Source: Cytophagales bacterium (lineage in GTDB: Bacteria > Bacteroidota > Bacteroidia > Cytophagales > Spirosomataceae). From it: a stretch of 43,767 bases of DNA. Of this stretch, positions 1,815-41,427 are shown piece by piece. The translations under genes were made by a program, and so were the position numbers. Numbering within the stretch: position 1 is the first letter of the stretch; each line of letters begins with the position of its first letter. The notes under the pieces were generated by a model. The model ran no database searches. It was not told the origin of the DNA and saw only the letters and a list, made by a program, of their open reading frames with translations. Location: the NCBI GenBank assembly GCA_004292855.1, contig RDXN01000080.1, forward strand, positions 1 through 43,767, given 5' to 3'.

Positions 1815-1845
1815 GTGCGCAGTGTTATTAATTAACATTGCGCAC
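1815..1845. terminator. Bidirectional hairpin between convergent genes
   Basis: Two 13-nt arms (1815-1827 and 1833-1845, starting GTGCGCA and ending TGCGCAC) pair with one G-T wobble around a 5-nt loop. It lies between the stop at 1788 and the stop of the minus-strand gene at 1847. No long T run follows on either side. Confidence 0.6.
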
Positions 1846-1846
1846 T

Positions 1847-2986
1847 TCACTTATAATAGCCCCATACCTCACGCGCCATACTAATTGGCTTCTTGACTTC
1901 GATAGAGACAATTAACTCGTCTAAAAGAGTACGTCCCTCCAGCCGCGATTCGTCAAGCTTATTGATCGGCTGATACACTTTACCGCGATCTTTCTGGTTT
2001 GCAAATGTAAACGCTACTGGTAATACGTAACGCCCAGCGTACTCTGGCCTAAGTTGAACGTATTTTTTCATGCCTTGTAGCACACTTAAATCGAAATTAT
2101 AGCCCACATTACTCGGGCTTAGCAGTTCAACATGTTGTATCTGTCCAGTAGAGGATACCTCGAAACCAACATACACTCTGGCGTATAGCTGATTGAGCCA
2201 ACCCTGGCTCGGGTACAATATAGTTTCGTGCAAGAATTGTGTAAAAACTGGCTCCACGCTCAATGCTGGCTTGGTCTTGCGATCCTCAACGACCAACTCG
2301 TCGAAATAAGTTAGAACCCGAGTCACTTCCTCTAAGGATAACTTTTCGACTTTGATAAAATCATTGATTTGCTCGGCATGCTCGAACAACACACGGACAA
2401 GCGAGCGTTTGGTTGGCTCAATAAATTCGGGCCGGGCGTCACCCTTCCGTATTAGATAAACTTCTTTTTGAGCATAATAACCGGCGAACTCACCCACTTT
2501 GTTGTAGCCGTTCGAAACCTGCGTGTCCGTTCTGAGCACCTTTCGCGAGGTGCGTTGCAATTGAGTGGGGCCGTCATGTGCGATGGTTGCGTAGAGATGA
2601 CTTTTCTCACCCATAAATCCAATTGGCTGTTTATAGTAGCGAAGGCCTTTAATTTCAAACGTATAGGGCGCAATATGATTCGCCGTTAAATCGCCATTTA
2701 ACCGACACAGCAGGTCGTTACTCACCATGTCGAATGCCAATTCGCAGGCAAGCTCCTGACTGCCGGGGTCCATCTGAATGGTGCCTTTCTCCCAGATTGG
2801 ATAACTCAGGTAGCGAGTACCCGCGAGACGATATTGCCGGTTTGTGTTGCTCGAATTGTCGTAACTGTCGCAGGTGGTGACTACCTGACCATTGGCCTCA
2901 ACAGAAACGGTACAACGGTCTGTTGGTGATTGTGCGGATGCTATTCGATAAGAACATACGATAAGCGTTAGGATATAGCGATTCAT
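1847..2986 (-). CDS. Secreted protein with TonB C-terminal-like domain, 379 aa
   Basis: The protein starts with a signal peptide (ILTLIVCSYRIASAQ, cleavage likely after ASA). The N-terminal 200 residues have no family I recognise; they include repeated short strands and may resemble MORN-type repeats only loosely. Residues about 260-330 look like the energy-transducer TonB C-terminal domain: 'LYARVYVGFEVSSTGQI', then 'VELLSPSNVGYNFD' and 'PVAFTF'. In Bacteroidota this domain is common in periplasmic proteins unrelated to iron transport. A good promoter lies at 3051-3079, leaving a 58-nt leader. The gene converges with the DUF3127 gene. Function unknown. Confidence 0.75.
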   Translation of the reverse strand: MNRYILTLIVCSYRIASAQSPTDRCTVSVEANGQVVTTCDSYDNSSNTNRQYRLAGTRYLSYPIWEKGTIQMDPGSQELACELAFDMVSNDLLCRLNGDLTANHIAPYTFEIKGLRYYKQPIGFMGEKSHLYATIAHDGPTQLQRTSRKVLRTDTQVSNGYNKVGEFAGYYAQKEVYLIRKGDARPEFIEPTKRSLVRVLFEHAEQINDFIKVEKLSLEEVTRVLTYFDELVVEDRKTKPALSVEPVFTQFLHETILYPSQGWLNQLYARVYVGFEVSSTGQIQHVELLSPSNVGYNFDLSVLQGMKKYVQLRPEYAGRYVLPVAFTFANQKDRGKVYQPINKLDESRLEGRTLLDELIVSIEVKKPISMAREVWGYYK

Positions 2987-3050
2987 ATCTGTTTTCGGTT
3001 GACTGTTGGATGGGAGACCGCAAAAATGCGGGAGCGAAACTCTCAGTAAA

Positions 3051-3079
3051 CAAAACTATAATAAATTCGAATTGTACAA
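3051..3079 (-). promoter_or_regulatory. Promoter of the TonB-domain gene with palindrome at -33
   Basis: On the minus strand TTG (3077-3079), an 18-nt spacer and TAGTTTTG (3051-3058) match the Bacteroidota consensus. The -33 element sits inside a perfect 12-nt palindrome, AATTGTACAATT (3070-3081), which could be an operator. Confidence 0.65.
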
Positions 3080-3103
3080 TTTTTGTGTATGTACGTAGCA
3101 ACG

Positions 3104-3130
3104 AAAAAAGCCTCGACACTGTCGGGGCTT
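3104..3130 (-). terminator. Terminator of the tRNA-Lys genes
   Basis: Reading the minus strand, AGCCCCGACA and TGTCGAGGCT pair with one G-U around a short loop and are followed by six T, 12 nt past the tRNA. Confidence 0.8.
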
Positions 3131-3141
3131 CTTATTCTTTG

Positions 3142-3214
3142 TGATCCGGCTGGGATTCGAACCCAGGACCCATACATTAAAAGTGTATTGCTCTACCAGC
3201 TGAGCTACCAGATC
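3142..3214 (-). tRNA. tRNA-Lys (anticodon TTT), copy 1
   Basis: A 73-nt cloverleaf: acceptor arms GATCTGG/CCGGATC, D arm with AGCTCAG...GGTAGAGCA, anticodon TTT in loop CTTTTAA, and T arm with GTTCGAATC. CCA is not encoded. It is identical to the copy at 3311-3383, and both are probably made from one transcript starting near 3430, with the terminator at 3104-3130. Confidence 0.96.
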
Positions 3215-3217
3215 GAA

Positions 3218-3304
3218 CAGATGGCAGTGAGCAATGAACAGCCAACAGTAAATGAAAACTAGAATCAGTATTGCTGTTGGCTGTTCACTGATCGCTGCTA
3301 TCTG
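3218..3304. repeat. Imperfect long hairpin between the tRNA-Lys copies
   Basis: A 34-nt arm (3218-3251) pairs with 3271-3304: 29 of 34 positions are Watson-Crick and three more are G-T wobbles. The core word TGAACAGCCAACAG is exact. Within the tRNA transcript it would fold into a stem separating the two tRNAs. It belongs to the class of word-rich hairpins seen at gene ends in this window. Confidence 0.8.
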
Positions 3305-3310
3305 TCTTTG

Positions 3311-3383
3311 TGATCCGGCTGGGATTCGAACCCAGGACCCATACATTAAAAGTGTATTGCTCTACCAGCTGAGCTACCAGATC
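3311..3383 (-). tRNA. tRNA-Lys (anticodon TTT), copy 2
   Basis: Base-for-base identical to the tRNA-Lys at 3142-3214, with anticodon TTT and no encoded CCA. A promoter at 3437-3468 precedes it. Tandem identical copies suggest a recent duplication or conversion. Confidence 0.96.
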
Positions 3384-3386
3384 GAC

Positions 3387-3395
3387 TATTTTTGC
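3387..3395 (+). promoter_or_regulatory. -7 element for the TPR/SH3 gene
   Basis: TATTTTTGC matches TAnnTTTG exactly, just outside the 5' end of tRNA-Lys copy 2. No TTG lies at 17-23 nt spacing. Transcription would start near 3401, consistent with a coding start at 3445 or 3463. Confidence 0.45.
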
Positions 3396-3436
3396 ACGTA
3401 TGTCAGCGGTTTTAAGCCGCTTTCCAAAATCGTGGT

Positions 3437-3468
3437 GCAAAAGTATGTCTCTTTTTGATTCAATGCAA
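3437..3468 (-). promoter_or_regulatory. Promoter of the tRNA-Lys pair
   Basis: On the minus strand TTG (3466-3468), a 20-nt spacer and TACTTTTGC (3437-3445) match the consensus. It lies over the start codon region of the opposite-strand TPR/SH3 gene, so the two transcripts overlap for about 30 nt. Confidence 0.65.
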
Positions 3469-4188
3469 GCCCTCGTTCTTAAAAAAAGCCTATTTATCGG
3501 TTTTTTTCTAGGTAGTATGGCTCTAACCGGACGGGCCGCTGTCGACCTAAAACGGGCCGATTCGCTCTTTGCAAAAGGGCGTCTCGACGATGCCGCGCTG
3601 CTCTATGAGGTGGCAATGGCTGAGGGTCAGATGGCTACCGATCCGGTACTGCTTAAAATGGCTTATATCGCCGAGCGCAACGGCGACCCGGCTCGGTTGC
3701 TTTACTTTTTACAAGTATTTTTTGAGCGACACCCGCAGGAAACCGTGCTGCGCAAAATGAATGAAGTGGCTCGGAGCAACAATTTGATCGGCTACGAAAC
3801 CGACGACCTTAATTATTTCTACCTGTTCTACAAACAGTATGGCATCTACCTGTTGCTGTTTCTGCTCGGACTGGGCGTTTATGTATTTGGGGTTCTTGTA
3901 CTAAAGATGACCCGCAAAGAGCCGTCTCCCGTTCGCCATAAATTGGTCGTGTTGGGGTATTTGTTCACGCTGTTGTTATTCGTAAACCTCCCCGAAGGCT
4001 ATCAATCCGGTATCACAAGCCGCGACCGGGTGTTACTCCGGCAGGGGCCATCGGCAGCCTCTCCCGTAACCGAAATCATAGGTCGTGGCCACAAGGTCAA
4101 TATTCTGGGTAGTGAAGACATATGGCTCCGCATCTTTTGGAACGATCAACTCTACTACATCCGAAAAGATCAGGTTTGGGTGATTTAA
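3445..4188 (+). CDS. TPR and SH3-like domain membrane protein, 247 aa (BatE-like)
   Basis: The order is: an N-terminal hydrophobic signal/anchor, a short TPR-like helical region ('ADSLFAKGRLDDAALLYEVA', then 'LKMAYIAERNGDPARLLYFL'), two membrane helices (IYLLLFLLGLGVYVFGVLVL and LVVLGYLFTLLLFVNL), and a C-terminal bacterial SH3-like domain ('RDRVLLRQGPSAASPVTEII', then 'IWLRIFWND'). This TPR-TM-SH3 plan resembles BatE of the Bacteroides aerotolerance (bat) loci, but no other bat gene is adjacent. An ATG at 3400 is excluded by the promoter position; 3463 is an alternative start. The stop codon lies inside the perfect palindrome at 4187-4251. Confidence 0.75.
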   Translation: MSLFDSMQALVLKKSLFIGFFLGSMALTGRAAVDLKRADSLFAKGRLDDAALLYEVAMAEGQMATDPVLLKMAYIAERNGDPARLLYFLQVFFERHPQETVLRKMNEVARSNNLIGYETDDLNYFYLFYKQYGIYLLLFLLGLGVYVFGVLVLKMTRKEPSPVRHKLVVLGYLFTLLLFVNLPEGYQSGITSRDRVLLRQGPSAASPVTEIIGRGHKVNILGSEDIWLRIFWNDQLYYIRKDQVWVI

Positions 4189-4251
4189 AAATGCATAATG
4201 CATAATGATGAATGCGTATTACGCATTCATCATTATGCATTATGCATTTTT
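4187..4251. repeat. Perfect 65-nt palindrome spanning two stop codons
   Basis: Arms 4187-4218 and 4220-4251 are exact reverse complements (32 of 32) around one central base. They are built from repeats of the word ATGCATAATG. The palindrome contains the stop codon of the plus gene ending at 4188 and encodes the last residues (MHNA) plus stop of the minus gene ending at 4233. The outer ends give U-runs on both strands, so it can terminate both transcripts. Confidence 0.95.
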
Positions 4252-5054
4252 AACGGTGAATCTTTCTCTTTCGCCAGCGTATTGTACACGAGCCGGTCGG
4301 TGAGGCCGGGGAAGAGCTTGTTGAGGAAAACGGTGAGCTTGCCCTGCGTGGTTAGAATGAGTTCGCGTTTGCGTTTTTTGACTGCTTTTACAATGTGGTC
4401 GGCGCATTCCTCGGCGGTCATCATGTTCGTCTCGTCACGGACGCTCTCGCCTGCTTCGTTGCCACCTGCGTCCAGAGCTGCCACCCGAATGTTTGATGTT
4501 GTAAAACCCGGACAGGCCGTGAGCACGTGTACGCCCGAATGGAGCAGTTCCGTGCGTAAGGCTTCCAGAAAACCGTTCATGGCAAACTTAGAGGCCGAGT
4601 ACCCCGCCCGGACCGGAAGCCCGCGATACCCGGCAATGGACGAGATGCCGACAATGGACCCTTTGGTTTTCAGAATATGGGACAGGGCGTAACGCGTGGC
4701 ATACACGGTCCCCATAAAGTTAACGTCCATCACCTTGCGAAACACAGCCGGATCAGCCTCGGCTACCATCGAGCGCATCGTAATTCCCGCGTTGTTGATG
4801 AGTATATCGAGCCGACCATATTGAGCAACTGTCTGTTCGACAAGCTGTTGCATGTCGCTCTCAATGCTGACATCAGCACGAAGGGCCAAATTTGGAATAC
4901 CGGCCTGGGTGAGTTCCTGACTGACGGCGGTGAGGGCCTCGACTTTGCGGGCACAGATAACGATGGTGGCTCCTTCGCGGCCAAAAGCGAACGCTAGTGC
5001 CCGCCCAATTCCCGACGATGCGCCGGTGATAACGACTACTTTTTGCTGAAACAT
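4233..5054 (-). CDS. Short-chain dehydrogenase/reductase (SDR), 273 aa
   Basis: A classical SDR: the NAD(P)-binding TGASSGIG is at residues 10-17, NNAG at 87-90, the catalytic Ser near 139, and the YSASK motif gives Tyr152 and Lys156. A basic residue follows the first glycine motif and an Arg appears at the end of the second strand (ICAR), which favours NADP(H). The C-terminal 40 residues are Lys-rich with a hydrophobic stretch, as in membrane-associated DHRS7/11beta-HSD-like members. Substrate unknown. An in-frame ATG at 5072 would add six residues. The start is 27 nt after the stop of the CHU_C gene, so co-transcription is likely. The last four residues are supplied by the palindrome at 4187-4251. 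Confidence 0.9.
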   Translation of the reverse strand: MFQQKVVVITGASSGIGRALAFAFGREGATIVICARKVEALTAVSQELTQAGIPNLALRADVSIESDMQQLVEQTVAQYGRLDILINNAGITMRSMVAEADPAVFRKVMDVNFMGTVYATRYALSHILKTKGSIVGISSIAGYRGLPVRAGYSASKFAMNGFLEALRTELLHSGVHVLTACPGFTTSNIRVAALDAGGNEAGESVRDETNMMTAEECADHIVKAVKKRKRELILTTQGKLTVFLNKLFPGLTDRLVYNTLAKEKDSPLKMHNA

Positions 5055-5080
5055 ACCCGCAAAAGTAGTCATTTGCCGCG

Positions 5081-7342: not shown

Positions 7343-7409
7343 GGGTTAACGGCTTCCAGGCTGCACAGAGTCGAATTTGACCCTTAAATTAGCGATTTAT
7401 TTAGCGATT

Positions 7410-8858: not shown

Positions 8859-8885
8859 ATTGCGCTTTTTCATTCACTACAAAAT

Positions 8886-9761
8886 ATGCAGCTAAAACTT
8901 ACGTATCTACCTTTTAGTAAGGGGTTTTCCCTGCTTGTTCTATTTTTTCTGAGTGCCTGTTACCTGCCTGTCATGGGGCAATCGACCGGGCCGCCATCAA
9001 CATCGGCGACTGGTTGGCTCCGGCTCAACGGTAATGTGGGCGTCAATACCTCGGACCCCAAAGCCCGTTTGCAGGTGGCCGATGGCGACGTGTATGTTGA
9101 TAAGATTGGTTCGGGAGTGATTTTACGCGCTCCAAACGGGGGCTGCTGGCGCGTCACGGTCGACAACAGTGGTAATCTGGTCCGCACGGCTATCCTGTGC
9201 CCCGGTGCCTATCAGGTGTCATTCCAACCCGGACCCGCCGATGGGCAGGATGGCTACACAAGCACGTTTAACCAAAATACCCGTGGCGACGGTTTAGGCA
9301 TGGCTATTAGCTCCTGGACAACCAACGGAGGTACACCCGTATTGTATCAGGGGTATTTTCGGTTCGACCTCTCGGCTATTCCGGCAACGGCCCGCATCGA
9401 CAGCGCGTTTCTAAGCTTGACGTATTATGAAGGGTGGTTTGCCGATTCTAACGTAGGAAACAACCCAACGTACGTTCAGCGTGTAACAAGCCCCTGGGAT
9501 CAGGCCACGTTGACCTATACCAACCGGCCCGGTACTACTGCGGTTGGGCAAATTTCGGTGCCCGCAGCCAGTGCTTACCCTACGGTGTATCAGAAACTGA
9601 ACATCACCTCGCTGGTAGCGACTCCGGCCACCAACTACGGTTTCTCGATCCGGCAACAGGACGAAACGCCTGCGCCACCCTACCGGGGGTTGCTATTTGC
9701 TACCAGCGAAAACCCAACGCCTTCGTATCGACCCAGATTGATCGTGTATTATAGCTTGTAG
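8886..9761 (+). CDS. Secreted DNRLRE-domain protein, 291 aa
   Basis: A signal peptide (FSLLVLFFLSACYLPVMGQ) is followed by a short beta region (GNVGVNTSDPKARLQV) like that found in Bacteroidota proteins with tail-fibre-type repeats. Residues about 110-291 form a DNRLRE domain: 'DGYTSTFNQNTRGDG', then 'GYFRFDLSAIPATARIDSAFL', then 'VTSPWDQATLTYTNRP' and the closing 'YRPRLIVYY'. DNRLRE domains occur in extracellular polysaccharide-related and surface proteins. No T9SS tail is evident. It starts 27 nt after rlmD and may share its transcript. The stop codon borders the long palindrome at 9761-9869. Confidence 0.85.
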   Translation: MQLKLTYLPFSKGFSLLVLFFLSACYLPVMGQSTGPPSTSATGWLRLNGNVGVNTSDPKARLQVADGDVYVDKIGSGVILRAPNGGCWRVTVDNSGNLVRTAILCPGAYQVSFQPGPADGQDGYTSTFNQNTRGDGLGMAISSWTTNGGTPVLYQGYFRFDLSAIPATARIDSAFLSLTYYEGWFADSNVGNNPTYVQRVTSPWDQATLTYTNRPGTTAVGQISVPAASAYPTVYQKLNITSLVATPATNYGFSIRQQDETPAPPYRGLLFATSENPTPSYRPRLIVYYSL

Positions 9762-9869
9762 GGATAAAGGAGGAAAGGGAGGAGGGGGAAGAAAGGGATC
9801 GCTAACGCACGTTTTGCTTTCGCGTCAGCCATCCCTTTCTTCCCCCTCCTCCCTTTCCTCCTTTATCCC
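9761..9869. repeat. Long inverted repeat filling a convergent gene junction
   Basis: Arms 9761-9799 and 9831-9869 are exact reverse complements (39 of 39), purine-only on the left (words like AGGAAAGGGAGG) and pyrimidine-only on the right. An inner, imperfect extension pairs GCTAACGC with GCGTCAGC. The repeat runs from the last base of the DNRLRE stop codon to 1 nt before the dnaB stop codon. It can act as a terminator both ways. Confidence 0.95.
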
Positions 9870-9870
9870 C

Positions 9871-12552
9871 TTAAAACGGTGTTGCCTGATTGGGGTCGGC
9901 GTTGCCGAAGTTAGACAGATCGTTGGCGCGGCTGCGAACGGTGCCGCCGGTGGGTGGGAGGGGCGGCATGGCATTGGGGCCTGTTGGCGGCTGGTTACTT
10001 CCACCCGAACCGTCGAAACTGCTCAAGCCCGTTACGTTTGTGGGGAAGCCCGTGGGAGAGGGAACAGCTTCAAAATACGAATCCAGATCGCAGAACTTGG
10101 TGAAGCGGCTCACGAACCGTAACTGAATGGTATCGAGCGAGCCAGAACGGTTTTTTGCCACGATTACCTCACCAATGCCTGCTGTTGAATTACCGGCTTC
10201 GTCCTGCGTAATGTTGTAATATTCAGGACGATAGAGAAACATAACCATGTCGGCATCCTGCTCGATAGATCCCGATTCACGAAGGTCGGAAAGCTGTGGT
10301 TTCTTGTCGCCCCCCCGCGTTTCAACGGCCCGGCTCAACTGCGAGAGAGCAATAACAGGCACGTTCAACTCCTTGGCGAGGTTCTTCAACGCTCGTGAGA
10401 TCGAGGCAATTTCCTGTTCGCGGTTGGCCCCTTTGCTGTTGTCGCCCTGCATGAGCTGGAGGTAGTCGATCACCACCATCTGAATATCGTGTTGCGCTTT
10501 CAGACGACGGCACTTAGCCCGAAGTTCCAGAATCGACAGGGCCGGGGTGTCGTCAATGTAAATCGGGGCTTCGGTCAGGCGTTGAATTTTGTGGTGCAAC
10601 TGCGTCCACTCGTGCGGGGCAAGCGTCCCTTTTTTGATCTTCTCACTGTCGATCTCAGCCTCTGCCGAGATCAAACGATTCACCAACTGCACCGCCGACA
10701 TCTCCAACGAGAAAATCGCCACGGGTTGCCCAAAGTCGACAGCCGCGTTGCGCAAGGCCGAAACCACAAAAGCGGTGTTGTGAGTCACGGTCATGTCTTC
10801 GAGCAGGAACAGGTGGTTCCCGTCGATAGTAAACCCGTAATAATCATCAACCTGATCGTACTCGACCTGAATCCCCGTCACGCGCCAATCAGCGCGTGCC
10901 CGAAGCGGCCTTGCTTTCTTCCGTTCGATGCGCACAGGGATTGAGTCCAGATTACCGAAAATTCGTAGCCGGTAAACTGTTGACACATAGGCACGGGATG
11001 CTATCGTAGCCTGTTTTTCTTTAAGCGAACAACGAAAACCAAGCGTGTCGCAGAGGTATTTAAGTTGTTCGGCTAACGCTTTGTTCTTCTGCACGATCTC
11101 GTAACAGTTGAACGCTTCCTGATAATGCCCGTCGCTGTCGATTAGCCCTGCCAGAAGTTTCAAGCGGTTTTCGCCTGAATTGATGAGATAGGCGTTAGGG
11201 ATATGCTTATTTTCAATGACCGACAGGCCGCGCAACTGCTCTTGAACATTGAACACTTCAGGACGATTGCCGTATTGGGCACCCCCTCGCTTACCAGACG
11301 TAATGGCGTAGTTAGCTGTTCGATTGGCTTGCTGATACGTCGTCATTTGCAAACCCAGCGAGTCGGCGTAGGTTTGCAAATAGTCAACCACTTCGGTATC
11401 AACATTAGTGATACGTGAACTGTATGAATGCCCATCACCAAGCCATAATCCAACAAAATAGGGATCGAGGGGAACCGCTTTTTCAGGAAACTGAACGGCG
11501 ACTTTATAACCTTTGAAATTCGTCTTGAATTTATCGGACTTGGCTACATAGTCACGAATCGGAATGTTCAGAACTTCACCTTTTGAGCGCGTGCCTTCGT
11601 TACGCGACCGTCTCAAGGACAAAATATGGCTCTCATTGACGCGGTAACTGATGCCCTTGTTTTGATGCACCCAATACATGCGCTCGCGTCCTCGCGCCAG
11701 GCTTAACACACGCCGGGGCGTTGAGTCGTCACCCATAAGCAAATCGCCCTCGCGTACATCTTCCACGTTGCGGAGCGATCCATCAAACATGACAACCTTC
11801 GTGCCTTTACCGAGACATTTTCCCATTGCCGGACGAGCCGCCAGAATGGTTAGTTCGGTCGGTTGCCAACCCGACGTGAGTCGGTCCAATGCACTGAAGC
11901 CCGAGGGGATGCCTGTGAGACCGTCTTTGTTGTTTTTCTTGACTTCTAACTCCCTCAGAGCCTGCCCCACAATGGTGTTCATGTCGGCATAGTTCTTTCG
12001 GATGTTCGATTCGGAAATCCGAAACAGCGACTGTTCGGTATGGTCGAGGAGTTGAAAAACGTCGGTAGTGTCTTCATAAGCATCGCGCAACACCGTTGAG
12101 GCCATCGTGATCATGGCCCGCTTGAGGGCGTGCTCGGTAACGACCCGCGAGTGGTATTCGATGTTGGCCGCCGAGTTTACCTTCACTGTCAGGTCGGCCA
12201 CATAGCTGCCGCCCCCCACAAACTCCAGTTCGCCCGATTTACGCAGTTGCTGCGTAACGGTAAGCAGGTCAATGGGTTCGGAGTTCTGAAACAGGGTCAG
12301 GATAGCGTTGTAGATCCGCTGATGAGCCTCTTTATAGAAACTTTCAGGCTTCAAAATGTCGATCACAGCCGACAGGGCATCTTTTTCGATCATGAGCGCG
12401 CCCAACACGGCCATTTCGAGGTCGGTGGCCTGCGGAGGTAGCTTGCCGAGTCCGGTATCGAGCCGATCTAACCATTGATTGCCTGACTGTGAGCGAGTTC
12501 CGCCGATGCCGGGCGTTTTGCGCAGGTGTTGGTTGGGTCGAGAATTTTCCAT
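9871..12552 (-). CDS. dnaB: Replicative DNA helicase DnaB with an in-frame intein, 893 aa
   Basis: The extein (about 546 aa) is a normal DnaB: an N-terminal helical domain (DLEMAVLGALMIEKDAL), a linker, then the RecA-like ATPase. The P-loop ARPAMGK|TAFV is split after Gly-Lys by a 347-residue intein (residues 246-592), whose excision would restore GKT. Later motifs are intact: FSLEMS, VVIDYLQLM (Walker B), ALSQLSRAVETR and RESGSIEQDADM. The second known DnaB intein site, before SIEQDAD, is empty. The C-terminus is a Gly/Pro-rich tail of about 60 residues. ATG 12552 is chosen; a GTG at 12561 is in frame. DnaB unwinds the chromosome at replication forks, so splicing should be essential unless another dnaB exists. 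Confidence 0.95.
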   Translation of the reverse strand: MENSRPNQHLRKTPGIGGTRSQSGNQWLDRLDTGLGKLPPQATDLEMAVLGALMIEKDALSAVIDILKPESFYKEAHQRIYNAILTLFQNSEPIDLLTVTQQLRKSGELEFVGGGSYVADLTVKVNSAANIEYHSRVVTEHALKRAMITMASTVLRDAYEDTTDVFQLLDHTEQSLFRISESNIRKNYADMNTIVGQALRELEVKKNNKDGLTGIPSGFSALDRLTSGWQPTELTILAARPAMGKCLGKGTKVVMFDGSLRNVEDVREGDLLMGDDSTPRRVLSLARGRERMYWVHQNKGISYRVNESHILSLRRSRNEGTRSKGEVLNIPIRDYVAKSDKFKTNFKGYKVAVQFPEKAVPLDPYFVGLWLGDGHSYSSRITNVDTEVVDYLQTYADSLGLQMTTYQQANRTANYAITSGKRGGAQYGNRPEVFNVQEQLRGLSVIENKHIPNAYLINSGENRLKLLAGLIDSDGHYQEAFNCYEIVQKNKALAEQLKYLCDTLGFRCSLKEKQATIASRAYVSTVYRLRIFGNLDSIPVRIERKKARPLRARADWRVTGIQVEYDQVDDYYGFTIDGNHLFLLEDMTVTHNTAFVVSALRNAAVDFGQPVAIFSLEMSAVQLVNRLISAEAEIDSEKIKKGTLAPHEWTQLHHKIQRLTEAPIYIDDTPALSILELRAKCRRLKAQHDIQMVVIDYLQLMQGDNSKGANREQEIASISRALKNLAKELNVPVIALSQLSRAVETRGGDKKPQLSDLRESGSIEQDADMVMFLYRPEYYNITQDEAGNSTAGIGEVIVAKNRSGSLDTIQLRFVSRFTKFCDLDSYFEAVPSPTGFPTNVTGLSSFDGSGGSNQPPTGPNAMPPLPPTGGTVRSRANDLSNFGNADPNQATPF
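10777..11817 (-). mobile_element. DnaB intein with LAGLIDADG homing endonuclease
   Basis: The intein starts with Cys (CLGKGTKVV, block A) and ends with block G, TVTHN, followed by Thr of the extein. Block B carries the His of VNESHILSL. Two endonuclease helices are present, FVGLWLGDG and LAGLIDSDG, and block F (YRLRIFGN) precedes the C-terminal splicing motif. All residues for splicing (Cys1, block B His, penultimate His, terminal Asn, Cys/Ser/Thr+1) are there, and both endonuclease acidic residues are intact, so it looks active for splicing and possibly homing. The insertion site is the lysine-threonine junction of the P-loop, the most conserved point of the gene. Confidence 0.95.
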
Positions 12553-12560
12553 GATCACCA

Positions 12561-12592
12561 CAATGTTACGGAATCTTTACCCAAAAAGGCAA
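12561..12592 (-). promoter_or_regulatory. Possible dnaB promoter
   Basis: On the minus strand TTG (12590-12592), a 21-nt spacer and TAACATTG (12561-12568), one base off the -7 consensus. Transcription would start almost at the ATG at 12552, giving a near-leaderless mRNA. Confidence 0.3.
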
Positions 12593-25167: not shown

Positions 25168-25330
25168 AACCCCGGAGGGGTGACATGTCAATAGAAATTA
25201 GTGCTTCAAAGAGAATAAAAGCCCCATCGGGGCGTCATGTCCGAGAGGTAGCCCTTGAACATGACGCCCCGATGGGGCTTCTGTATACGTAAAATCCTGG
25301 TTTCTATTGACATGCCACCCCTCCGGGGTT
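25168..25330. repeat. Nested inverted repeat, REP-like (BIME-type)
   Basis: Two nested stem structures. The outer arms 25168-25197 and 25301-25330 are 30 nt with one mismatch and start with the small palindrome ACCCCGGAGGGGT. The inner arms 25220-25240 and 25259-25279 are 21 nt and exact and contain CCCCATCGGGG. The sequence resembles REP elements moved by RAYT-type transposases in Bacteroidota. It occupies the gap 25132-25643 before topA; the rest of that gap holds AT-rich sequence, a short open frame (25411-25620) that I do not trust, and the topA promoter. Confidence 0.85.
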
Positions 25331-28298: not shown

Positions 28299-28331
28299 GT
28301 TTCGGTTAATAGAACCGCACCGGCGGACCGG

Positions 28332-28385
28332 CAGATTATTATGATTTCTATGATCTTCACTGATCTTAAAAATCACAATAATCTG
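28332..28385. repeat. Imperfect hairpin after topA
   Basis: Arms 28332-28355 and 28362-28385 pair at 21 of 24 positions around a 6-nt loop (CAGATTATT with AATAATCTG at the base). AT-rich and word-like (TGATTT, TGATC). It could end topA transcription. It lies between two genes of the same direction. Confidence 0.7.
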
Positions 28386-28422
28386 CGTTCTATTTTTAAG
28401 CGAAAAATCGTATCTTACGCCT

Positions 28423-33777: not shown

Positions 33778-33808
33778 AAAAAACGGGGGTTTGGGATACG
33801 TAACAGGT

Positions 33809-33842: not shown

Positions 33843-33849
33843 GGTCATT

Positions 33850-33879: not shown

Positions 33880-33964
33880 GACTCATAATGATTTAGCCAG
33901 AAAAATGAAGGAAATGCACTTTGTTGTAGGTTCGTAAATATAGTAACTCTAAAAAATTAAATAC

Positions 33965-33995
33965 AAAAAAACCGCTGACGATTGCGCCAGCGGTT
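33965..33995 (-). terminator. Rho-independent terminator of the rho gene
   Basis: On the minus strand AACCGCTG and CAGCGGTT form an 8-bp stem followed by seven or more T. It lies 21 nt after the rho stop codon. Confidence 0.85.
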
Positions 33996-34015
33996 GTGTG
34001 TATTGAGCGTACTAA

Positions 34016-36232
34016 TTAGCGGTTCATTGAGATCAAAAACTCCTCGTTATTACGAGTACCTTTCATGCGGTCGAGCAGAAAATCCATTGATTCCATTGGG
34101 TTCATGTCGGACATGTGTTTCCGCAAAATCCAGACGCGTTGTAAAGTCTCTTTGTCGAGGAGCAGATCTTCCCGACGCGTGCTCGACGCTACGACGTCGA
34201 TGGCTGGATATATTCGTTTGTTTGACAGCTTACGGTCAAGTTGAACTTCCATGTTGCCGGTGCCTTTAAATTCCTCAAAGATCACCTCGTCCATTTTTGA
34301 GCCTGTGTCAATCAAAGCCGTCGCTATGATGGTTAGTGAACCGCCGTTTTCCACGTTACGGGCCGCCCCAAAGAACCGCTTAGGCTTGTGCAGCGCGTTG
34401 GCGTCGACACCACCCGACAAAATCTTGCCCGACGACGGCACCACTGTGTTGTAGGCCCGTGCTAAACGCGTGATCGAATCAAGCAAAATCACGACGTCGT
34501 GACCGCACTCGACCATCCGTTTGGCTTTTTCGAGCACCATGCTCGCCACTTTCACGTGCCGGTCGGCCTGCTCATCGAACGTTGACGAGATTACTTCGGC
34601 GTTCACGCTGCGAGCCATGTCAGTAACTTCCTCGGGTCGTTCGTCGATGAGCAAAATCAGCAAGTGAATTTCGGGGTGATTGCGTGTGATGGCGTTGGCT
34701 ATTTCCTTAAGCAACACTGTTTTACCCGTTTTGGGCTGGGCCACAATCATACCCCGTTGGCCCTTGCCGATGGGCGCGAACAGGTCCAACACCCGCGTCG
34801 AATACTGATCGGGGCGGTTGGTCAGTCTAATTTGCTCTTCGGGGAATAGGGGCGTAAGGTACTCAAACGGAATCCGGTCGCGAATCTCTTCGGTGGTTTT
34901 TCCGTTCACGGTTGTTACGCGCAACAGGGCAAAATATTTCTCGCCCTCTTTGGGTGGCCGAATGGCTCCTTTCACGGTATCGCCCGTTTTGAGGCCAAAC
35001 AGCTTGATCTGCGAGGGCGACACATAAATATCGTCGGGGCTAGCCAGATAATTATAGTCGGCTGAGCGCAGGAACCCGTAACCGCCGTCGGACATGATTT
35101 CCAGAACGCCTTCGTTCTCAATAATTCCGTCGAACTCGCGGATGTGTTGGTTATACTGGCGACGAATGCGGTTCTGATACTCCAGCGACTCACGCGAAGG
35201 CTGCGGAGCCTGCTCGTTTTTCTGCCCTTCGGCATCACCCGACTCGTCCGTAAGGGTGGGCGCATCGCTCGGCGCAGTAGCCTCCGTTCCGGTAGCATCG
35301 GTTTCGGCTTGTGCGGGTTGAACGGTTGTGTTGCCTTCTTCAACAACGGTTGGGGTCAAAAATTCCTCTTCCGACTCTGCCCGCATACTCATCGCTGACT
35401 CGTCGGGCATCCGTTGCCGACGCTCACGAAGGCCGCCCTCTCGTGGGCCGCCGGGGCGTTGCCCGTCGTTAGGGCGGTTGCGCCCTTCTCCATCCCGACC
35501 GGGACTGTTAAACCGGTTCTGACGTGAATCGTTCAGATTGGTTCCGCCCTCTCGTGGGCCTCCCTCTCGTGGGCCTCGCTCACGTGGATTTGCGTCACGT
35601 GGGCCAGCCTCACGCGGATTTGCATCGCGTGGTCCGCCAGTACGTTCGTCGCGACGAGCGAAGCGGTTAGTCGGATCATTGTTCCGGTCGTTCCGGTCGA
35701 AACGGGGGTTTTCGGGGCGTTGCCGCCCTTCGTTTCGTCCGACAGGTTCTGGGCGTGTTAGTTCGGCAGGAGGTATTATTTCGGCTGGCTGTGGCGTGGG
35801 TGCGTTGAGTGGCTCTTCGTCAGTTTTGGCAATCGGCTCGTTCTCGGGCGTGGGCGGAGGGGTATCAGTAGCCACCGGATCGCGCCGAACGCGCCCCCGT
35901 GTACGTGCGGCAACAGGAGCAGGTGATTCTTCGACTACAGGCGGTGCTGTTTCGGGAGTTGCAGCTACAGGCACTGGCTCAGGGGCGGGTGTGGTCTCAG
36001 TTTCAGGGGCAGGAGCCACCGCTTTCACCGGGCGACGACCCCGACGGGGAGCCTCAACGACCGCAACCTCGGCCATACCCTCTTCGGGCATAGGTTGGCG
36101 GGCCTGCTGGTCCAGAATCTTGTAAATCAGTTCACGTTTGAGGTACTTGTTGGCATCGGTAACACCAAACTGGTCGGCAATAGTCCGTAGCTCCGAGAGG
36201 AGCTTGTCATTCAATTCTTCAATATTGTACAT
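34016..36232 (-). CDS. rho: Transcription termination factor Rho with a 300-residue disordered insertion, 738 aa
   Basis: Residues 1-45 are the Rho_N helical domain ([18 protein letters not shown]). Residues about 46-350 are low complexity: Pro/Ala/Val/Glu-rich, then Arg/Gly/Asn/Asp-rich with near-exact tandem repeats ([15 protein letters not shown]) at 200-230. Residues 360-445 are the RNA-binding cold-shock-like domain ([15 protein letters not shown]). The hexameric ATPase follows, with Walker A at 497-505 (VAQPKTGKT), Walker B ([15 protein letters not shown]), the Q/R-loop segments and '[13 protein letters not shown]'. The insert is typical of Bacteroidota Rho. Rho unwinds RNA to end transcripts. 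It has its own intrinsic terminator and a long leader. Confidence 0.95.
35550..35650. repeat. Short tandem repeats within the rho disordered region
   Basis: Near-repeats of 15-18 nt (plus strand words such as CCCTCTCGTGGGCC and CTCACGTGGATTTGCGTC) encode the alternating GPRDANPRE and GPREGG units. They are prone to slippage, so length may vary between strains. Confidence 0.7.
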
Positions 36233-36455
36233 AATGGTTAGGTTAGTCAGTAACCTTGCGTTGCGAAAAGCGTGCGTTTGAGTTGGCCGAACGGCTTAGT
36301 TCCGGTAGATCGGACGTTGCGTTGATTCGCGCGTTCGAGTAAATGGATTGGTAATAAATAAGAAAATCGGTAAGCTGGTGTTTATGAAACGTCCCAAACA
36401 GGCTGTTGTATCGGGAACGAACGACGCATCGGGAGATGGTCGGAGATAAGACAGG
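36233..36455 (-). promoter_or_regulatory. Long 5' leader of rho
   Basis: The promoter at 36456 implies a leader of about 217 nt before the rho ATG at 36232. No convincing coding frame is seen in it, and it contains short GC-rich inverted words (for example TTCCGG and CCGGTA). A leader of this size fits autogenous control of rho, known in Escherichia coli. The rest of the gap (36490-36597) is the upstream region of the sugar porter gene, with no clear promoter box. Confidence 0.5.
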
Positions 36456-36487
36456 GCAAATGTAAGGACCGCACGTCTAATTGTCAA
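36456..36487 (-). promoter_or_regulatory. rho: Promoter of rho
   Basis: On the minus strand TTG (36485-36487), a 20-nt spacer and TACATTTGC (36456-36464), an exact -7 match. Confidence 0.65.
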
Positions 36488-36597
36488 TAGAACGCAACGG
36501 ACAGAAAAATGTTTCCTTCAATTCATAAAATTATAGCCCTGTTCTATTCTCATCCCCATCTTTCGTAGCTTGTGGTCTAAATTAACCCTTTTGACCA

Positions 36598-37956: not shown

Positions 37957-37965
37957 TTTTGGCTC

Positions 37966-39108
37966 ATGCGTATCCTGATTTCGCCCGACAAATTTAAAGG
38001 ATCACTGACAGCCCCGGAGGTTGCCGATGGCATGGCTGCGGCCCTCCGGGTTCGGTATCCCGATGCCGAATTGATCTGCAAGCCCGTTGCCGATGGGGGC
38101 GAAGGCACCGCCGAAGTGCTGACGACAGCCACCAACGGAACGCTACGGACAGTACAGGTACACGACCCATTGTTTCGACCCGTTGAGGCAACCTACGGCA
38201 TTTCGGGTGATGGGCAAACGGCCTTTGTCGAGATGGCACAGGCGTCGGGCCTGCACCTGGTGCCGCCCAAACAGCGCAATCCATTGGCCGCCAGCACATA
38301 CGGCACGGGCCAATTGATTCACGATGCGATTCGGCAGGGAGTAAGCGAGGTTGTCTTATGTGTGGGGGGCAGTGCCACAACCGATGCGGGCATTGGTATG
38401 GCAGCGGCCCTAGGCTACGAGTTTCTCGACCACCAGAACAATCCGTTGCCGCCTATTGGCAAGTCGATGAGTCAGGTGACCCGGATTCGGCGAACCGTGT
38501 TGATTCCCGATCTAGGGCGGGTGCGGTTCCGAGTTGCCTGCGATGTCGACAATCCGTTATTTGGTCCCAATGGAGCCGCCTACGTGTACGGTCCGCAAAA
38601 AGGCGCGACGCCCCGGCTGGTAAAAGAACTTGACAAAGGCTTGCGTACGATTGACGGTGTGTTGAAATACGATTTTGGTATTGAAGAAGCCGACATGCCC
38701 GGAGCCGGAGCCGCCGGAGGATTAGGCTATGGGGCGCGGGTTTTCCTGAAAGCAACGTTCGGACGTGGGTTCGATTTGGTTGCCCAAACGCTCAACCTGG
38801 AAGACGAAATCCGTCGGGCCGATCTGGTCATAACGGGCGAAGGGAGCCTGGATGAACAAACGTTGCAAGGTAAAGTAATAGCGGGCATTGCGCGGCTGGC
38901 GAAGGTCCATCAAACACCCGTTGCGGCATTTTGTGGTCGCTTATTGCTCAACCCCGACCAAATTCGGCAGTTGGGCCTGATCGACGCCCTGCCTATAACG
39001 CCCACCGGGATGGCCCTTGAGGAAGCCATCGAGCAGGCTCCGTTCCTACTCCGGGAGACCGTAGCAGCCTGGGCAGTTGGCTTGCCGGGGCGATTGGATA
39101 AGAATTAG
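37966..39108 (+). CDS. glxK: Glycerate kinase, 380 aa
   Basis: The GckA/GlxK class I fold: 'ISPDKFKGSLTAPEVADGM' at the N-terminus, 'KPVADGGEGTAEVL', 'GTGQLIHDAI', 'CVGGSATTDAGIGMAAALGY' as CVGGSATTDAGIGM, 'ACDVDNPLFGPNGAA', 'PGAGAAGGLGYG', and 'VITGEGSLDEQTLQGK'. It phosphorylates D-glycerate to 2- or 3-phosphoglycerate with ATP. Length is normal. It lies 9 nt after the sugar porter gene. Confidence 0.94.
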   Translation: MRILISPDKFKGSLTAPEVADGMAAALRVRYPDAELICKPVADGGEGTAEVLTTATNGTLRTVQVHDPLFRPVEATYGISGDGQTAFVEMAQASGLHLVPPKQRNPLAASTYGTGQLIHDAIRQGVSEVVLCVGGSATTDAGIGMAAALGYEFLDHQNNPLPPIGKSMSQVTRIRRTVLIPDLGRVRFRVACDVDNPLFGPNGAAYVYGPQKGATPRLVKELDKGLRTIDGVLKYDFGIEEADMPGAGAAGGLGYGARVFLKATFGRGFDLVAQTLNLEDEIRRADLVITGEGSLDEQTLQGKVIAGIARLAKVHQTPVAAFCGRLLLNPDQIRQLGLIDALPITPTGMALEEAIEQAPFLLRETVAAWAVGLPGRLDKN

Positions 39109-39184
39109 GACGGTTGTAAATCGGAATATAAACTATTGTCGTAAGGTAGGGTTGGTAGAAATTAAACAACTAACCAGCAAAAAT

Positions 39185-40060
39185 ATGCCTTACATTAAAA
39201 CTGGCGACAGCTACAACGACGAACCGATTAGCCTGTTTTACGAGGATAACGGACAGGGACAACCCGTTGTGTTTATCCACGGATGGCCGCTCGACCACCA
39301 AATGTGGGAGTACCAAATGACCGAATTGCCTCAGCAGGGCCTGCGTTGTATTGCCTACGACCGGCGGGGCTTCGGAAAATCGTCGAAACCTTATGAGGGA
39401 TACACGTACGATGCGTTCGCCGACGACTTGAAAGCCGTTCTGGACGATTTAAATTTACAAAACGTGACGCTTGTAGGCTTTTCGATGGGTGCTGGCGAGA
39501 TCGCCCGGTACATGAGCCGCCATAAGGGTGCCCGCGTGGCAAAAGTGGTTTTGGTGGCCGGGGTGACTCCCTTCCTGCTCAAAACAGCCGATAACCCCGA
39601 CGGTGTGGACCAATCGACGTTCGACGGCATGGTTGACAAAATCAAAACCGACCGGGCCGATTTTCTGCAAACCTTCGGCAAACAGTTTTACGGTGTCAAT
39701 CTGGTGAGTCATCCCGTTAGTCAGGCGCACCTCGATGGCGACTTTATGCGGGCCTATCTGGCCTCCCCCAAGGCCACCATCGACTGCGTCCGGGCATTTT
39801 CCGAAACCGATTTCCGTTCCGACGTGCAAAGTATTCAGGTGCCGACGCTCATCATTCACGGCGATTCGGACAAAACAGTGCCCATAGAATCGTCGGGGGA
39901 GTTAACGGCTAACCTGATGATGAGTGCCACGTATAAAATTTACGACGGTGCTCCGCATGGCCTGTTCTATACTGAACGCAAGATGCTTAACCGCGACCTC
40001 CTCGACTTTATACTGGAGCCGACCGTGGCAAGACAACCCGCAACAGCAACAACGTTTTAG
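39185..40060 (+). CDS. Alpha/beta hydrolase of the non-heme chloroperoxidase type, 291 aa
   Basis: The fold is shown by the oxyanion motif HGWP (32-35), 'YDRRGFGKSSKP', nucleophile Ser100 in GFSMGAGE, the acid Asp in 'IHGDSDKTVP' and the His in 'GAPHGLFY'. The 'GFSMG' elbow with 'RRGFGRS' is that of cofactor-free haloperoxidases and esterases. The natural substrate is unknown. ATG 39185 is chosen; an earlier start at 39077 overlaps glxK. Its stop borders the long repeat at 40061-40191. Confidence 0.88.
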   Translation: MPYIKTGDSYNDEPISLFYEDNGQGQPVVFIHGWPLDHQMWEYQMTELPQQGLRCIAYDRRGFGKSSKPYEGYTYDAFADDLKAVLDDLNLQNVTLVGFSMGAGEIARYMSRHKGARVAKVVLVAGVTPFLLKTADNPDGVDQSTFDGMVDKIKTDRADFLQTFGKQFYGVNLVSHPVSQAHLDGDFMRAYLASPKATIDCVRAFSETDFRSDVQSIQVPTLIIHGDSDKTVPIESSGELTANLMMSATYKIYDGAPHGLFYTERKMLNRDLLDFILEPTVARQPATATTF

Positions 40061-40191
40061 CAGAGAACAGAGAACAGTTTGCAGAGAACAGCCAACAGTA
40101 TAATTCATCGAAAGTTTACTGTTCTCTGCAAACTGTCCTCTGTTCTCTGCAAACTGTTCTCTGTTCTCTGCAAACTGTTCTCTGTTCTCTG
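40061..40191. repeat. Inverted repeat with tandem copies filling a convergent junction
   Basis: The left arm 40061-40091 pairs exactly (31 of 31) with 40161-40191. The right side contains about 3.4 tandem copies of a 21-nt unit (CTCTGTTCTCTGCAAACTGTT). The structure runs from 1 nt after one stop codon to 3 nt before the other. The word CTGTTCTCTG recurs throughout. It can terminate both genes. Confidence 0.93.
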
Positions 40192-40194
40192 TAA

Positions 40195-40635
40195 TTACGT
40201 TTCCACCACCTTTGTTTTCAGCCCTGCCCGGCTACCGTCGGCAGTGCGCCCGAGTAGATAGACGTCTATTTCGGTATCACCGACCCGGAACAGTTGCCGA
40301 ACGGTCAGATTCTCCTCAACTATTTTTTTGAGTTCGATAAAACGACTTGCCCGCTCTCTCTCTTCATCACCGTGCCAATCTTCCTGGCGTGTGGGCAGGT
40401 CCCAAAATTCATCTTCCGAGCCTTCTTCTACATAAACCGATGGGGGCAGCATGAGCCAATCCTCTATCTGACTGCCAGTTAGCGGGGCTTCTCCGTCGAG
40501 ATAACAGGTTACCCCTTCAATAGGCTCATCGGATTCGCTGGGGTACAACAAATCCTTCAACAGGGGGTCTATGCGTTGGGGCCATGCAGGAGGTGTTTGG
40601 TCGGGAGTGTTACTCTTGGGCATTTCGTTCGTCAT
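40195..40635 (-). CDS. NuiA-type nuclease inhibitor homologue, 146 aa
   Basis: The C-terminal half closely matches NuiA, the Anabaena inhibitor of the sugar-non-specific nuclease NucA: 'QEDWHGDEERERASRFIEL', 'VRQLFRVGDTEIDVYLLGRT' and the terminal 'AGLKTKVVET'. The acidic middle (EEGSEDEFWDL) and the N-terminal 'LLKDLLYPSESDEP' are also as in the family. NuiA binds the nuclease active site with acidic residues and its C-terminal Thr. No cytoplasmic NucA-type (beta-beta-alpha metal) nuclease is seen in the window. ATG 40635 is chosen; a TTG at 40650 is in frame. No signal peptide, so it acts in the cytoplasm. Confidence 0.82.
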   Translation of the reverse strand: MTNEMPKSNTPDQTPPAWPQRIDPLLKDLLYPSESDEPIEGVTCYLDGEAPLTGSQIEDWLMLPPSVYVEEGSEDEFWDLPTRQEDWHGDEERERASRFIELKKIVEENLTVRQLFRVGDTEIDVYLLGRTADGSRAGLKTKVVET

Positions 40636-40762
40636 AGTCGCTCTGATCAATTTGGGGCTAAATTACAACGGAGGTTGTATGCCATAGCTAAATTATAGTT
40701 ATTTTTCGGCCTGATTAATTAGTGCTCAATTGATCGTTTAACTCCTTTAATGTAATTCTACC

Positions 40763-41341
40763 ATGTTAGAAACTTTGATGAACCTTGTGCGTCAGCAATC
40801 GGGCGACGCCATCATCAACAACCCCGCCGTACCCAACGAACACAACGAAACGGCTATGCAGTCGGTAATGGAAGGTATCATGGGCGGTTTGCAACAGCAG
40901 GCGCAGGGCGGCAACGTCGGTGGATTGCTGCAAACCATCATGGGTCAGGGTGGCGGTGCCGCCAATATGCAAAACCCCATCATGGGCGGTATCATGAATA
41001 ATGTAGTGGGTAGCCTGATGGGCCGTTTGGGCGTATCGCAGGGTGTGGCCGGTGGCATTGCCAGTGCCGTTGTACCAATGGTATTGGACAAGTTCTTCAG
41101 TAAGGCGACTGATCCCAATGACTCAAGCGTCGATTTGGGCAGCATTATGGGTCAGGTGACTGGCAACCCACAGGCAGCCGGTGTCGATTGGATGGGCATG
41201 GCCTCAACCGCTATGGCCGATGGTAAACTCGACATGGGCGACATCATGCGCGTAGCCGGTGGTTTTATGGGCGGTGGTGGCGGTCAGCAACAGGGGGGCG
41301 GTGGCCTCGGTGGTATGCTCGGCGGCCTGTTCGGAAAATAG
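40763..41341 (+). CDS. DUF937-like Gly/Met-rich protein, 192 aa
   Basis: The protein starts 'ETLMNLVRQQSGDAIINNPAV' (quoted in part, LMNLVRQQSGDAII) and is built of helices rich in Gly, Met and Gln ('MEGIMGGLQQQAQGG', 'GSLMGRLGVSQGVAGGIASA'), like DUF937/YidB-type proteins. A segment 'MVLDKFFSKATDPND' follows, and the C-terminus is nearly pure Gly/Gln (GGGGGQQQGGGG). There is no signal peptide. Function unknown. A short palindrome TACAAC-GGAG-GTTGTA lies about 90 nt upstream, between it and the divergent NuiA-like gene. Confidence 0.75.
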   Translation: MLETLMNLVRQQSGDAIINNPAVPNEHNETAMQSVMEGIMGGLQQQAQGGNVGGLLQTIMGQGGGAANMQNPIMGGIMNNVVGSLMGRLGVSQGVAGGIASAVVPMVLDKFFSKATDPNDSSVDLGSIMGQVTGNPQAAGVDWMGMASTAMADGKLDMGDIMRVAGGFMGGGGGQQQGGGGLGGMLGGLFGK

Positions 41342-41360
41342 TAGACAGTAAGCAGTTTTC

Positions 41361-41427
41361 AGTAGGCAGTGTGCAGTAGGCAATAAGCAAAATAAAGATG
41401 CTAACTGCCTACTGCACACTGCCTACT
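41361..41427. repeat. Word-rich inverted repeat overlapping the menC 3' end
   Basis: Arms 41361-41389 and 41399-41427 pair at 27 of 29 positions. Each arm repeats the words CAGTAGGCA and CAGTGTGCA. The right arm encodes the last five residues and stop of menC. It lies between the DUF937-like gene and menC and may end both transcripts. Confidence 0.9.

What the first reader, a model, noticed from the sequence alone, without database searches (positions are those of the whole stretch)
1815..41427. Convergent gene ends are either fused or filled with long hairpins of unrelated sequence
Ten convergent junctions can be read. Five have gaps of 9 nt or less or overlap (16093/16098, 19792/19802, 29115/29112, 31556/31562, 43675/43678) and no hairpin. 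The five with gaps (1788/1847, 4188/4233, 9761/9871, 40060/40195, 41341/41409) each hold an inverted repeat that nearly fills the gap. The arms are 13, 32, 39, 31 and 29 nt. Except for the first, they are made of repeated short words, and the words differ at each site. This bimodal pattern suggests hairpins are made locally by a shared mechanism (such as strand-switching synthesis) and kept, rather than spread as one mobile repeat. I know of no named class that fits.
Basis: seen in the sequence. Interest (0 to 1): 0.75.

Follow-up and report, generated by a model that had tools for sequence, protein, structure and literature searches.

The report
Self-mirroring hairpins between convergent genes
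In this Rudanella-like bacterium, genes that point at each other either touch or are separated by little more than a long hairpin; the hairpin probably ends both transcripts, and its two arms appear to be rewritten together, often from a repeating seven-letter word, so a site can keep a hairpin while its sequence changes.

Summary
Four of the five gapped convergent junctions carry inverted repeats of 29-49 nt that fill the gap; the fifth is a weak 13-nt one. No hairpin of score >=16 arose in 20 resamples of the window; the window has seven. In 649 kb of the genome not chosen for such repeats, hairpins of score >=16 lie in 24 of 47 convergent gaps >=40 nt, 63 of 224 tandem and 10 of 76 divergent. 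Two congeners give 29/50 and 28/50 for convergent gaps, E. coli 1/19.

The reading is partly right. The hairpins are not one mobile repeat, nor all unrelated. Classes: ordinary terminator-like stems; stems of degenerate seven-letter words (three of the window's four); REPIN-like copied palindromes (266 half-site hits). In tandem gaps they lie near the upstream stop.

Local arm-to-arm copying is favoured: paired stem changes between two congeners are 28 against 7.9 expected, and a 16-nt insert in close inverted pairs has matching variable letters in 11 of 11 listed pairs.

Most likely these are gene-end barriers whose arms grow by slippage and are mirrored by template switching. Termination is untested. 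A Xanthomonas heptamer repeat is the closest published case: new variant of a known kind.

The parts
4185..4253 (.). Perfect 34-nt inverted repeat with a 1-nt spacer, built of AATGCAT-like 7-nt words, with A and T tracts at its feet; fills the 4188/4233 convergent gap and runs into both gene ends
9761..9869 (.). 48-nt inverted repeat (96%), purine-rich outer arms with a GCTAACGC/GCGTCAGC loop-side core; fills the 9761/9871 convergent gap
   Evidence: G001 and G002 share a related loop-side core but not the long outer arms
40051..40201 (.). 49-nt inverted repeat (88%) of CAGAGAA 7-nt words, about two 21-nt units in the left arm and three and a half in the right; fills the 40060/40195 convergent gap
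41361..41427 (.). 29-nt inverted repeat (93%) of CAGTAGG-like 7-nt words with A and T tracts outside it; fills the 41341/41409 convergent gap and covers the last codons of the minus-strand gene
1815..1845 (.). Weak 13-nt inverted repeat with one mismatch in the 1788/1847 convergent gap
   Evidence: read by eye; below the threshold
3217..3305 (.). 35-nt inverted repeat (86%) of CAG words between two tRNA-Lys genes: the same class away from a convergent junction
25168..25330 (.). Two nested palindromes in a tandem gap; the inner one (25219-25280) is a near copy of arms elsewhere in the genome
28315..28330 (-). Copy of the 16-nt element CGGTCCGXCGNNX'CGG, beside the tandem-gap hairpin 28331-28386

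Best explanation
The gapped convergent junctions hold gene-end hairpins that most likely stop, or protect the 3' ends of, both incoming transcripts (a bidirectional barrier), in a genome whose convergent gaps are trimmed to little more than that hairpin. The arms are renewed in place: an arm lengthens by slippage on a short word, usually of 7 nt, and template switching inside the hairpin copies the change to the other arm, so the two stay complementary while the sequence drifts or is replaced. Some sites were also taken by copied REPIN-like palindromes. Shown: location, excess over chance, 7-nt periodicity, paired changes, sequence turnover at orthologous sites. Inferred: the termination role, slippage, and template switching as the copying step.
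For: Hairpins of score >=16 in 24 of 47 convergent, 63 of 224 tandem and 10 of 76 divergent gaps of the unbiased sample; G001 29/50, 27/234, 1/60 and G002 28/50, 33/238, 3/67. Tandem hairpins lie nearer the upstream stop in 48 of 63, 23 of 28 and 27 of 33. Convergent gaps fold at z < -5 in 34 of 52, 22 of 38 and 25 of 48, against 2 of 21 in E. coli. Lag-7 noncoding arrays 16 (unbiased O sample), 23 and 21, with 0-2 at lags 4-6 and 9-13. Two-sided stem changes 28 against 7.9 expected, 0 of 2000 shuffles reaching it. The mirrored insert has the same variable letters in 11 of 11 close inverted pairs in the 76 listed of 240 hits (my reading of the list). Orthologous junctions hold hairpins of other sequence.
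Against: No RNA data. Only 4 of 34 convergent hairpins in this genome have an A-rich and a T-rich foot, 5 one, 25 neither, so most do not look like textbook intrinsic terminators. Alignable stems evolve slower (0.071 per site) than fourfold sites (0.27), so they are not hypermutable. Paired changes can also come from compensatory selection; 62 one-sided changes exist. Detection favours matching partners. Between this genome and G002 hairpin presence in convergent gaps is not associated. In G001 one close inverted pair of inserts is discordant, one concordant.
Confidence: 0.5

Rival explanations
1. Copied mobile palindromes (REPIN or MITE-like) of several families insert everywhere and survive mainly at gene 3' ends, where they do least harm; arm agreement is inherited from the source copy.
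For: 266 hits of one half-site, in the listed part largely as inverted pairs about 60 nt apart; 35 of 116 sampled hairpins are near copies; 8 Y1_Tnp genes in the genome; G001 junctions with an additional palindrome beside a conserved stem; insert variants tied to one host family at some sites.
Against: The window's four convergent hairpins have no near copy among the 116 sampled hairpins (best other-site match 0.33-0.66); word order differs from site to site while the partner arm agrees; 24 of 47 convergent gaps against 10 of 76 divergent is a strong positional preference.
Confidence: 0.25
2. Ordinary bidirectional intrinsic terminators, kept by selection with compensatory substitutions; their great length is a lineage habit and needs no copying mechanism.
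For: E. coli convergent gaps are also structured (15 of 21 at z < -3); many G001/G002 stems are alignable, slow and have A and T tracts.
Against: Stems of 34-49 nt with near-perfect pairing exceed what termination needs (general knowledge); only 1 of 19 E. coli convergent gaps has one of score >=16; 7-nt word arrays and mirrored inserts are not explained.
Confidence: 0.2
3. Assembly or sequencing artefact producing fold-back sequence.
For: The window's genome is a 108-contig draft; inverted repeats are difficult to assemble (general knowledge).
Against: Similar rates in G002, whose main contig is 6.33 Mb, and identical or nearly identical hairpins at many orthologous sites of G001 and G002; dependence on gene orientation.
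Confidence: 0.02

Closest known systems
GGGAATC heptamer repeats of Xanthomonas (PMC4692102; passages and section 10 read)
   Same: Degenerate 7-nt word arrays, mostly intergenic, nearer the end of the preceding gene (average 28 nt) than the next gene (160 nt); 70 and 75 cases of close inverted pairs; commoner between convergent (16%) than divergent (7-8%) genes; long ones not at the same genes in two species.
   Different: One G-rich word there, studied as quadruplex; here several word families, stop-to-stop filling of convergent gaps, and paired arm changes.
Template-switch-made and -repaired hairpins (PMC8794818; abstract and Discussion read)
   Same: Long perfect stems appearing and being corrected by copying one arm from the other.
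   Different: Shown there for RNA genes with reconstructed ancestors; here in bacterial gene-end spacers, by pairwise comparison only.
Intrinsic terminators and inverted repeats downstream of stop codons in E. coli (PMC6060812; passages read)
   Same: Inverted repeats concentrated just after stop codons and at gene ends, mostly parts of intrinsic terminators.
   Different: Those have repeat units from 8 bp; here stems of tens of bp, often without a T tract at the foot.
REP/REPIN elements and RAYTs (PMC3733652 passages read; PMC3116915 seen in search listings only)
   Same: Copied palindromes as inverted pairs, 3'-end location; Y1_Tnp genes in the genome.
   Different: The window's four convergent hairpins are not copies; no tag or transposase flank was tested.
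Long intergenic palindromes of Blochmannia (PMC3017870; passages read)
   Same: Palindromes of 62-136 bp, nearly all at least partly intergenic; selection for their presence suggested.
   Different: Few per genome (6-20); no word structure or convergent bias reported in the passages seen.
TAACTGA heptamer repeats of Beggiatoaceae, Cyanobacteria and some Bacteroidetes (PMC4679880; abstract and passages read)
   Same: 7-nt intergenic direct repeats, also found in Bacteroidetes.
   Different: Mostly upstream of start codons, with one inverted case in the main genome.

Membership tests
Bidirectional intrinsic terminator | strong hairpin just after the stop codons of both genes | tested here: met
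   four window junctions filled by the hairpin
Bidirectional intrinsic terminator | T tract at the 3' foot on both strands | tested here: inconclusive
   both feet in 4 of 34 (this genome), 6 of 28 and 6 of 28 (G001, G002); no chance control was run; in the window 4185-4253 and the sequence around 41335-41432 have such tracts by eye
Bidirectional intrinsic terminator | transcripts end there | not testable with these tools
   no RNA data
Heptamer word repeat with inverted partner (Xanthomonas type) | 7-nt period in the arms | tested here: met
   3 of the window's 4 convergent hairpins; 9761-9869 has no clear period
Heptamer word repeat with inverted partner (Xanthomonas type) | one genome-wide consensus word | tested here: not met
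   several words; so it is filed as like that type, not as that repeat
REPIN / REP with RAYT | near-identical copies elsewhere in the genome | tested here: not met
   for the window's four convergent hairpins: best other-site arm match 0.33-0.66 in the sampled genome; met for other hairpins, 266 hits of one half-site
REPIN / REP with RAYT | copies flanking a RAYT gene | not tested
   8 Y1_Tnp matches found, flanks not examined
Template-switch-made hairpin | changes mirrored in both arms above chance | tested here: met
   28 against 7.9 expected; insert pairs 11 of 11 concordant in a partial list
Template-switch-made hairpin | single-event footprint against a reconstructed ancestor | not tested
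   only pairwise comparisons were made

The most novel reading that the evidence does not exclude
Gene ends in this genus carry self-renewing hairpins: pausing of forks or head-on polymerases at the hairpin triggers slippage and strand-switching synthesis, so the structure is maintained by the mutation process itself, in a multi-word 7-nt vocabulary, while its sequence is rewritten; the barrier between convergent genes would be inherited as a shape rather than as a sequence.
Probability: 0.2. Interest if true: 0.8.

Novelty: new variant of a known kind. Interest (0 to 1): 0.5.

Why it matters
Long, nearly perfect stems at what would be hundreds of gene ends (extrapolated from a sample of about 13% of the genome) are hard to keep by selection base by base. 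If arm-to-arm copying keeps them, these junctions are a natural, countable assay of template switching in a bacterium, and a case where a gene-end structure can persist while its sequence does not. It would also mean that sequence comparison misses equivalent gene-end structures.

Tried and rejected
One repeat for all hairpins: rejected, several classes. A special mechanism for fused versus filled: not needed; gaps <10 nt have no room, and the three fused junctions matched in G002 are fused there too; trimming of gaps down to a needed hairpin would be enough (inference). Conservation of hairpin presence between this genome and G002 in convergent gaps: not seen (Fisher p = 1.0); tandem p = 0.047 on small numbers. 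Faster evolution of arms: not seen, alignable stems differ at 0.071 per site against 0.27 at fourfold sites; some unalignable cases are an additional palindrome beside a conserved stem. Edges placed at the stops beyond chance: in this genome 16 hairpins with both edges within 15 nt against 18.5 expected, since they fill the gaps; G001 9 against 4.7, G002 7 against 4.2. Lack of SbcD as cause: this genome and G001 have a match over the cut-off, G002 only a partial match under it. Rho is present in all three genomes, so Rho-dependent ends at fused junctions remain possible. Rfam gave only two tRNAs in the window.

Bias and dropped rows. Some stretches of this genome (contigs C34, C45, C62 and C1:180001-200000) were taken because one search had hits there; with them the counts are 35/60 convergent, 74/273 tandem, 12/102 divergent and 26 lag-7 arrays, without them and the window 24/47, 63/224, 10/76 and 16. 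One of the 20 stretches (G008) was likewise taken at a repeat hit and yields one of the 4 lag-7 arrays of the 19-genome pool. Contig C6 (L055) is all N; it is (where it adds a false array) and was left out. Lag-7 arrays in called genes: 6 in this genome, 0 and 0 in the congeners. One search counts both directions: 103 alignable, 14 replaced or unalignable, 35 without a hairpin in the other genome; one search counts each hairpin once and keeps 47 stems without indels from 89 junctions with a hairpin in either. One search used at most 70 tandem gaps per genome. One search lists 76 of the 240 matches of this genome and none of G003; the 11 pairs are read by eye from that list (4 of them confirmed). 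Genes were called by my own simple script, and counts differ by one or two between calls.
Full report
What is there. The window is contig 33 of an unnamed 6.25-Mb, 108-contig genome. The nearest named relatives of a window protein are loci at 81-82% identity, two titled Rudanella and one titled Flavobacterium sp. SUN052, then Fibrisoma, Arsenicibacter, Spirosoma and Fibrella, so it is a Spirosomataceae close to Rudanella. Seven hairpins of score >=16 exist in the window against none in 20 Markov resamples. Score is matches minus two per mismatch, ungapped.

Is it particular to convergent ends? I sampled this genome (O, 796 kb; and the window), G001 (591 kb) and G002 (600 kb) of the same genus. 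Part of the O sample was picked at repeat hits, so I give the 649 kb without it: hairpins of score >=16 in 24 of 47 convergent, 63 of 224 tandem and 10 of 76 divergent gaps >=40 nt. G001: 29/50, 27/234, 1/60. G002: 28/50, 33/238, 3/67. A pool of 19 other genomes of the family gives 9 of 33 convergent gaps, and Dyadobacter, Pontibacter and other more distant loci 1 of 9; 200 kb of E. coli K-12 gives 1 of 19. In O the convergent hairpin takes up a median of 0.88 of its gap (34 junctions; 0.79 of 24 in the unbiased part), in G001 and G002 0.48 and 0.60. 'Filled' is thus strongest in the window's own genome. In tandem gaps the hairpin is nearer the upstream stop in 48 of 63, 23 of 28 and 27 of 33. 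The feature belongs to gene 3' ends, and a convergent gap is two of them.

Ordinary and unusual parts. Convergent gaps of 30-250 nt fold at z < -3 against shuffles in 42 of 52 (O), 30 of 38 and 37 of 48, but also in 15 of 21 for E. coli; divergent gaps in 14 of 79, 1 of 30, 2 of 33, and 1 of 18. At z < -5 the convergent counts are 34, 22 and 25 against 2 of 21. A structured convergent gap is ordinary; the length and perfection of the stems are not.

Seven-letter words. Noncoding arrays repeating at lag 7 number 16 in the unbiased O sample, 23 in G001 and 21 in G002, with 0-2 at each of the lags 4-6 and 9-13 and 4-9 at lag 8; the 19-genome pool has 4 in 50 kb of noncoding DNA, one of them from a stretch picked at a hit, and E. 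coli none in 36 kb. Of lag-7 arrays, 15 of 23 (G001), 14 of 21 (G002) and 26 of 33 (O, including one false array from an all-N contig and the picked stretches) overlap an arm of a hairpin. The words recur: the CAGNNAA pattern has 54 hits in O with no control hit, and 1, 2 and 15 in the three congeners; a genome of another family has 15 hits but also 29 control hits. GACGTT words have 56 hits and no control hit.

Other classes. In O, 35 of 116 noncoding hairpins are near copies of arms elsewhere, 27 are period-7, 9 period-8 and 45 unique by my cut-offs. One copied half-site, GTCATYCCGANNNANGAGGRATC, has 266 hits and no control hit, in the listed part largely as inverted pairs about 60 nt apart. 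It looks like a REPIN; that name is by resemblance and from memory.

Do the arms copy each other? First, in period-7 hairpins of O the arm matches its own partner at a median of 0.87 and the nearest arm at any other site at 0.66; 7 of 27 match another site as well as the partner. Detection favours matching partners, so this alone is weak. Second, among 47 stems alignable without indels between G001 and G002, 28 pairs changed on both sides, 19 of them to another Watson-Crick pair, against 7.9 expected from random placement and a maximum of 15 in 2000 shuffles; 62 changed on one side. Compensatory selection would give this too. Third, a 16-nt element CGGTCCGXCGNNX'CGG has 240 hits in O and 3 in the control, and 29, 36 and 65 hits in the congeners. 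X and X' are complementary in 34 of 35 sampled copies of O, 18 of which lie in called genes. Where two copies lie close and inverted, the 11 pairs that I find among the 76 listed hits all have the same variable letters; four of these are in my sample, and there the insert lies at mirrored places of the two arms of a hairpin. G001 has one discordant and one concordant close pair. Two independent insertions with the same rare letters are unlikely; copying of one arm from the other, or formation of the second arm after the insertion, is simpler. Joint spread of host and insert is possible where a variant is tied to one host family.

Orthologous junctions. Between G001 and G002 (median protein identity 97%, fourfold-site divergence 0.27) 25 convergent junctions have a hairpin in both, 7 and 3 in one, and 15 in neither. 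By the count in both directions 47 convergent hairpins are alignable, 7 replaced or unalignable and 10 without a hairpin in the other. Between O and G002 thirteen convergent junctions could be matched: three fused in both and ten gapped in both; of the ten, three have hairpins in both, four only in O and three only in G002, without association. At the window's 40060/40195 junction three congener loci hold hairpins of other sequence, one again of CAG words; at 41341/41409 two do, and in the third I see by eye a terminator-like stem below my threshold. At 9761/9871 G001 and G002 share a related loop-side core while the long purine-rich outer arms are peculiar to O.

Mechanism. I think the hairpins act as gene-end barriers and that their arms are extended by slippage and equalised by template switching. 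Template switching that makes and repairs hairpin stems is published (PMC8794818, abstract and Discussion read). Heptamer arrays with inverted partners near gene 3' ends are published for Xanthomonas (PMC4692102, section 10 read). What is added here is the multi-word vocabulary, the filling of convergent gaps from stop to stop, and the paired arm changes. I found no paper on such hairpins in this family in the searches; that library holds open-access papers only.

Limits. No expression data, a home-made gene caller, about 13% of the genome, few orthologous junctions at the O-G002 distance, and only 4 of 34 O convergent hairpins with A and T tracts on both feet.

Noticed in passing
window 28315-28330 (minus strand); G000 genome-wide: A 16-nt element CGGTCCGXCGNNX'CGG with covarying X/X' (34 of 35 sampled copies), 240 hits in this genome against 3 control hits, often inside other palindromes; about half of the sampled copies lie in called genes.
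   Followed up: partly
window 3141-3383: Two tRNA-Lys (TTT) genes in tandem with a CAG-word hairpin between them.
   Followed up: no
window 9871-12561: DnaB helicase gene that appears to carry an intein with a homing endonuclease domain.
   Followed up: no
window 34016-36232: The minus-strand ORF of 738 aa holds the Rho RNA-binding domain: the transcription terminator Rho lies in the window itself.
   Followed up: no
window 4233-4253 and 41409-41427: The hairpin arm encodes the last codons of the minus-strand gene, so hairpin growth may have changed protein C-termini.
   Followed up: partly
window 25168-25330: One palindrome nested inside another in a tandem gap.
   Followed up: no
G000:C30, C26, C67, C108, C70, C101: Eight Y1_Tnp matches; their flanks were not compared with the 266-hit palindrome family.
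   Followed up: no
G002:C1:3061226-3061528: SbcD profile matches only partly and under its cut-off in G002, inside a 1944-aa open frame, unlike the other six genomes searched.
   Followed up: no
G026:C22:51500-51572: A genome of another family in the same order has long CAGCTAA heptamer arrays and many hits to the backward control pattern too, so heptamer arrays may be wider spread in the order.
   Followed up: no
L011: A locus titled Flavobacterium sp. SUN052 matches the window's gene and gene order like the Rudanella loci do; the title may be a misnomer.
   Followed up: no
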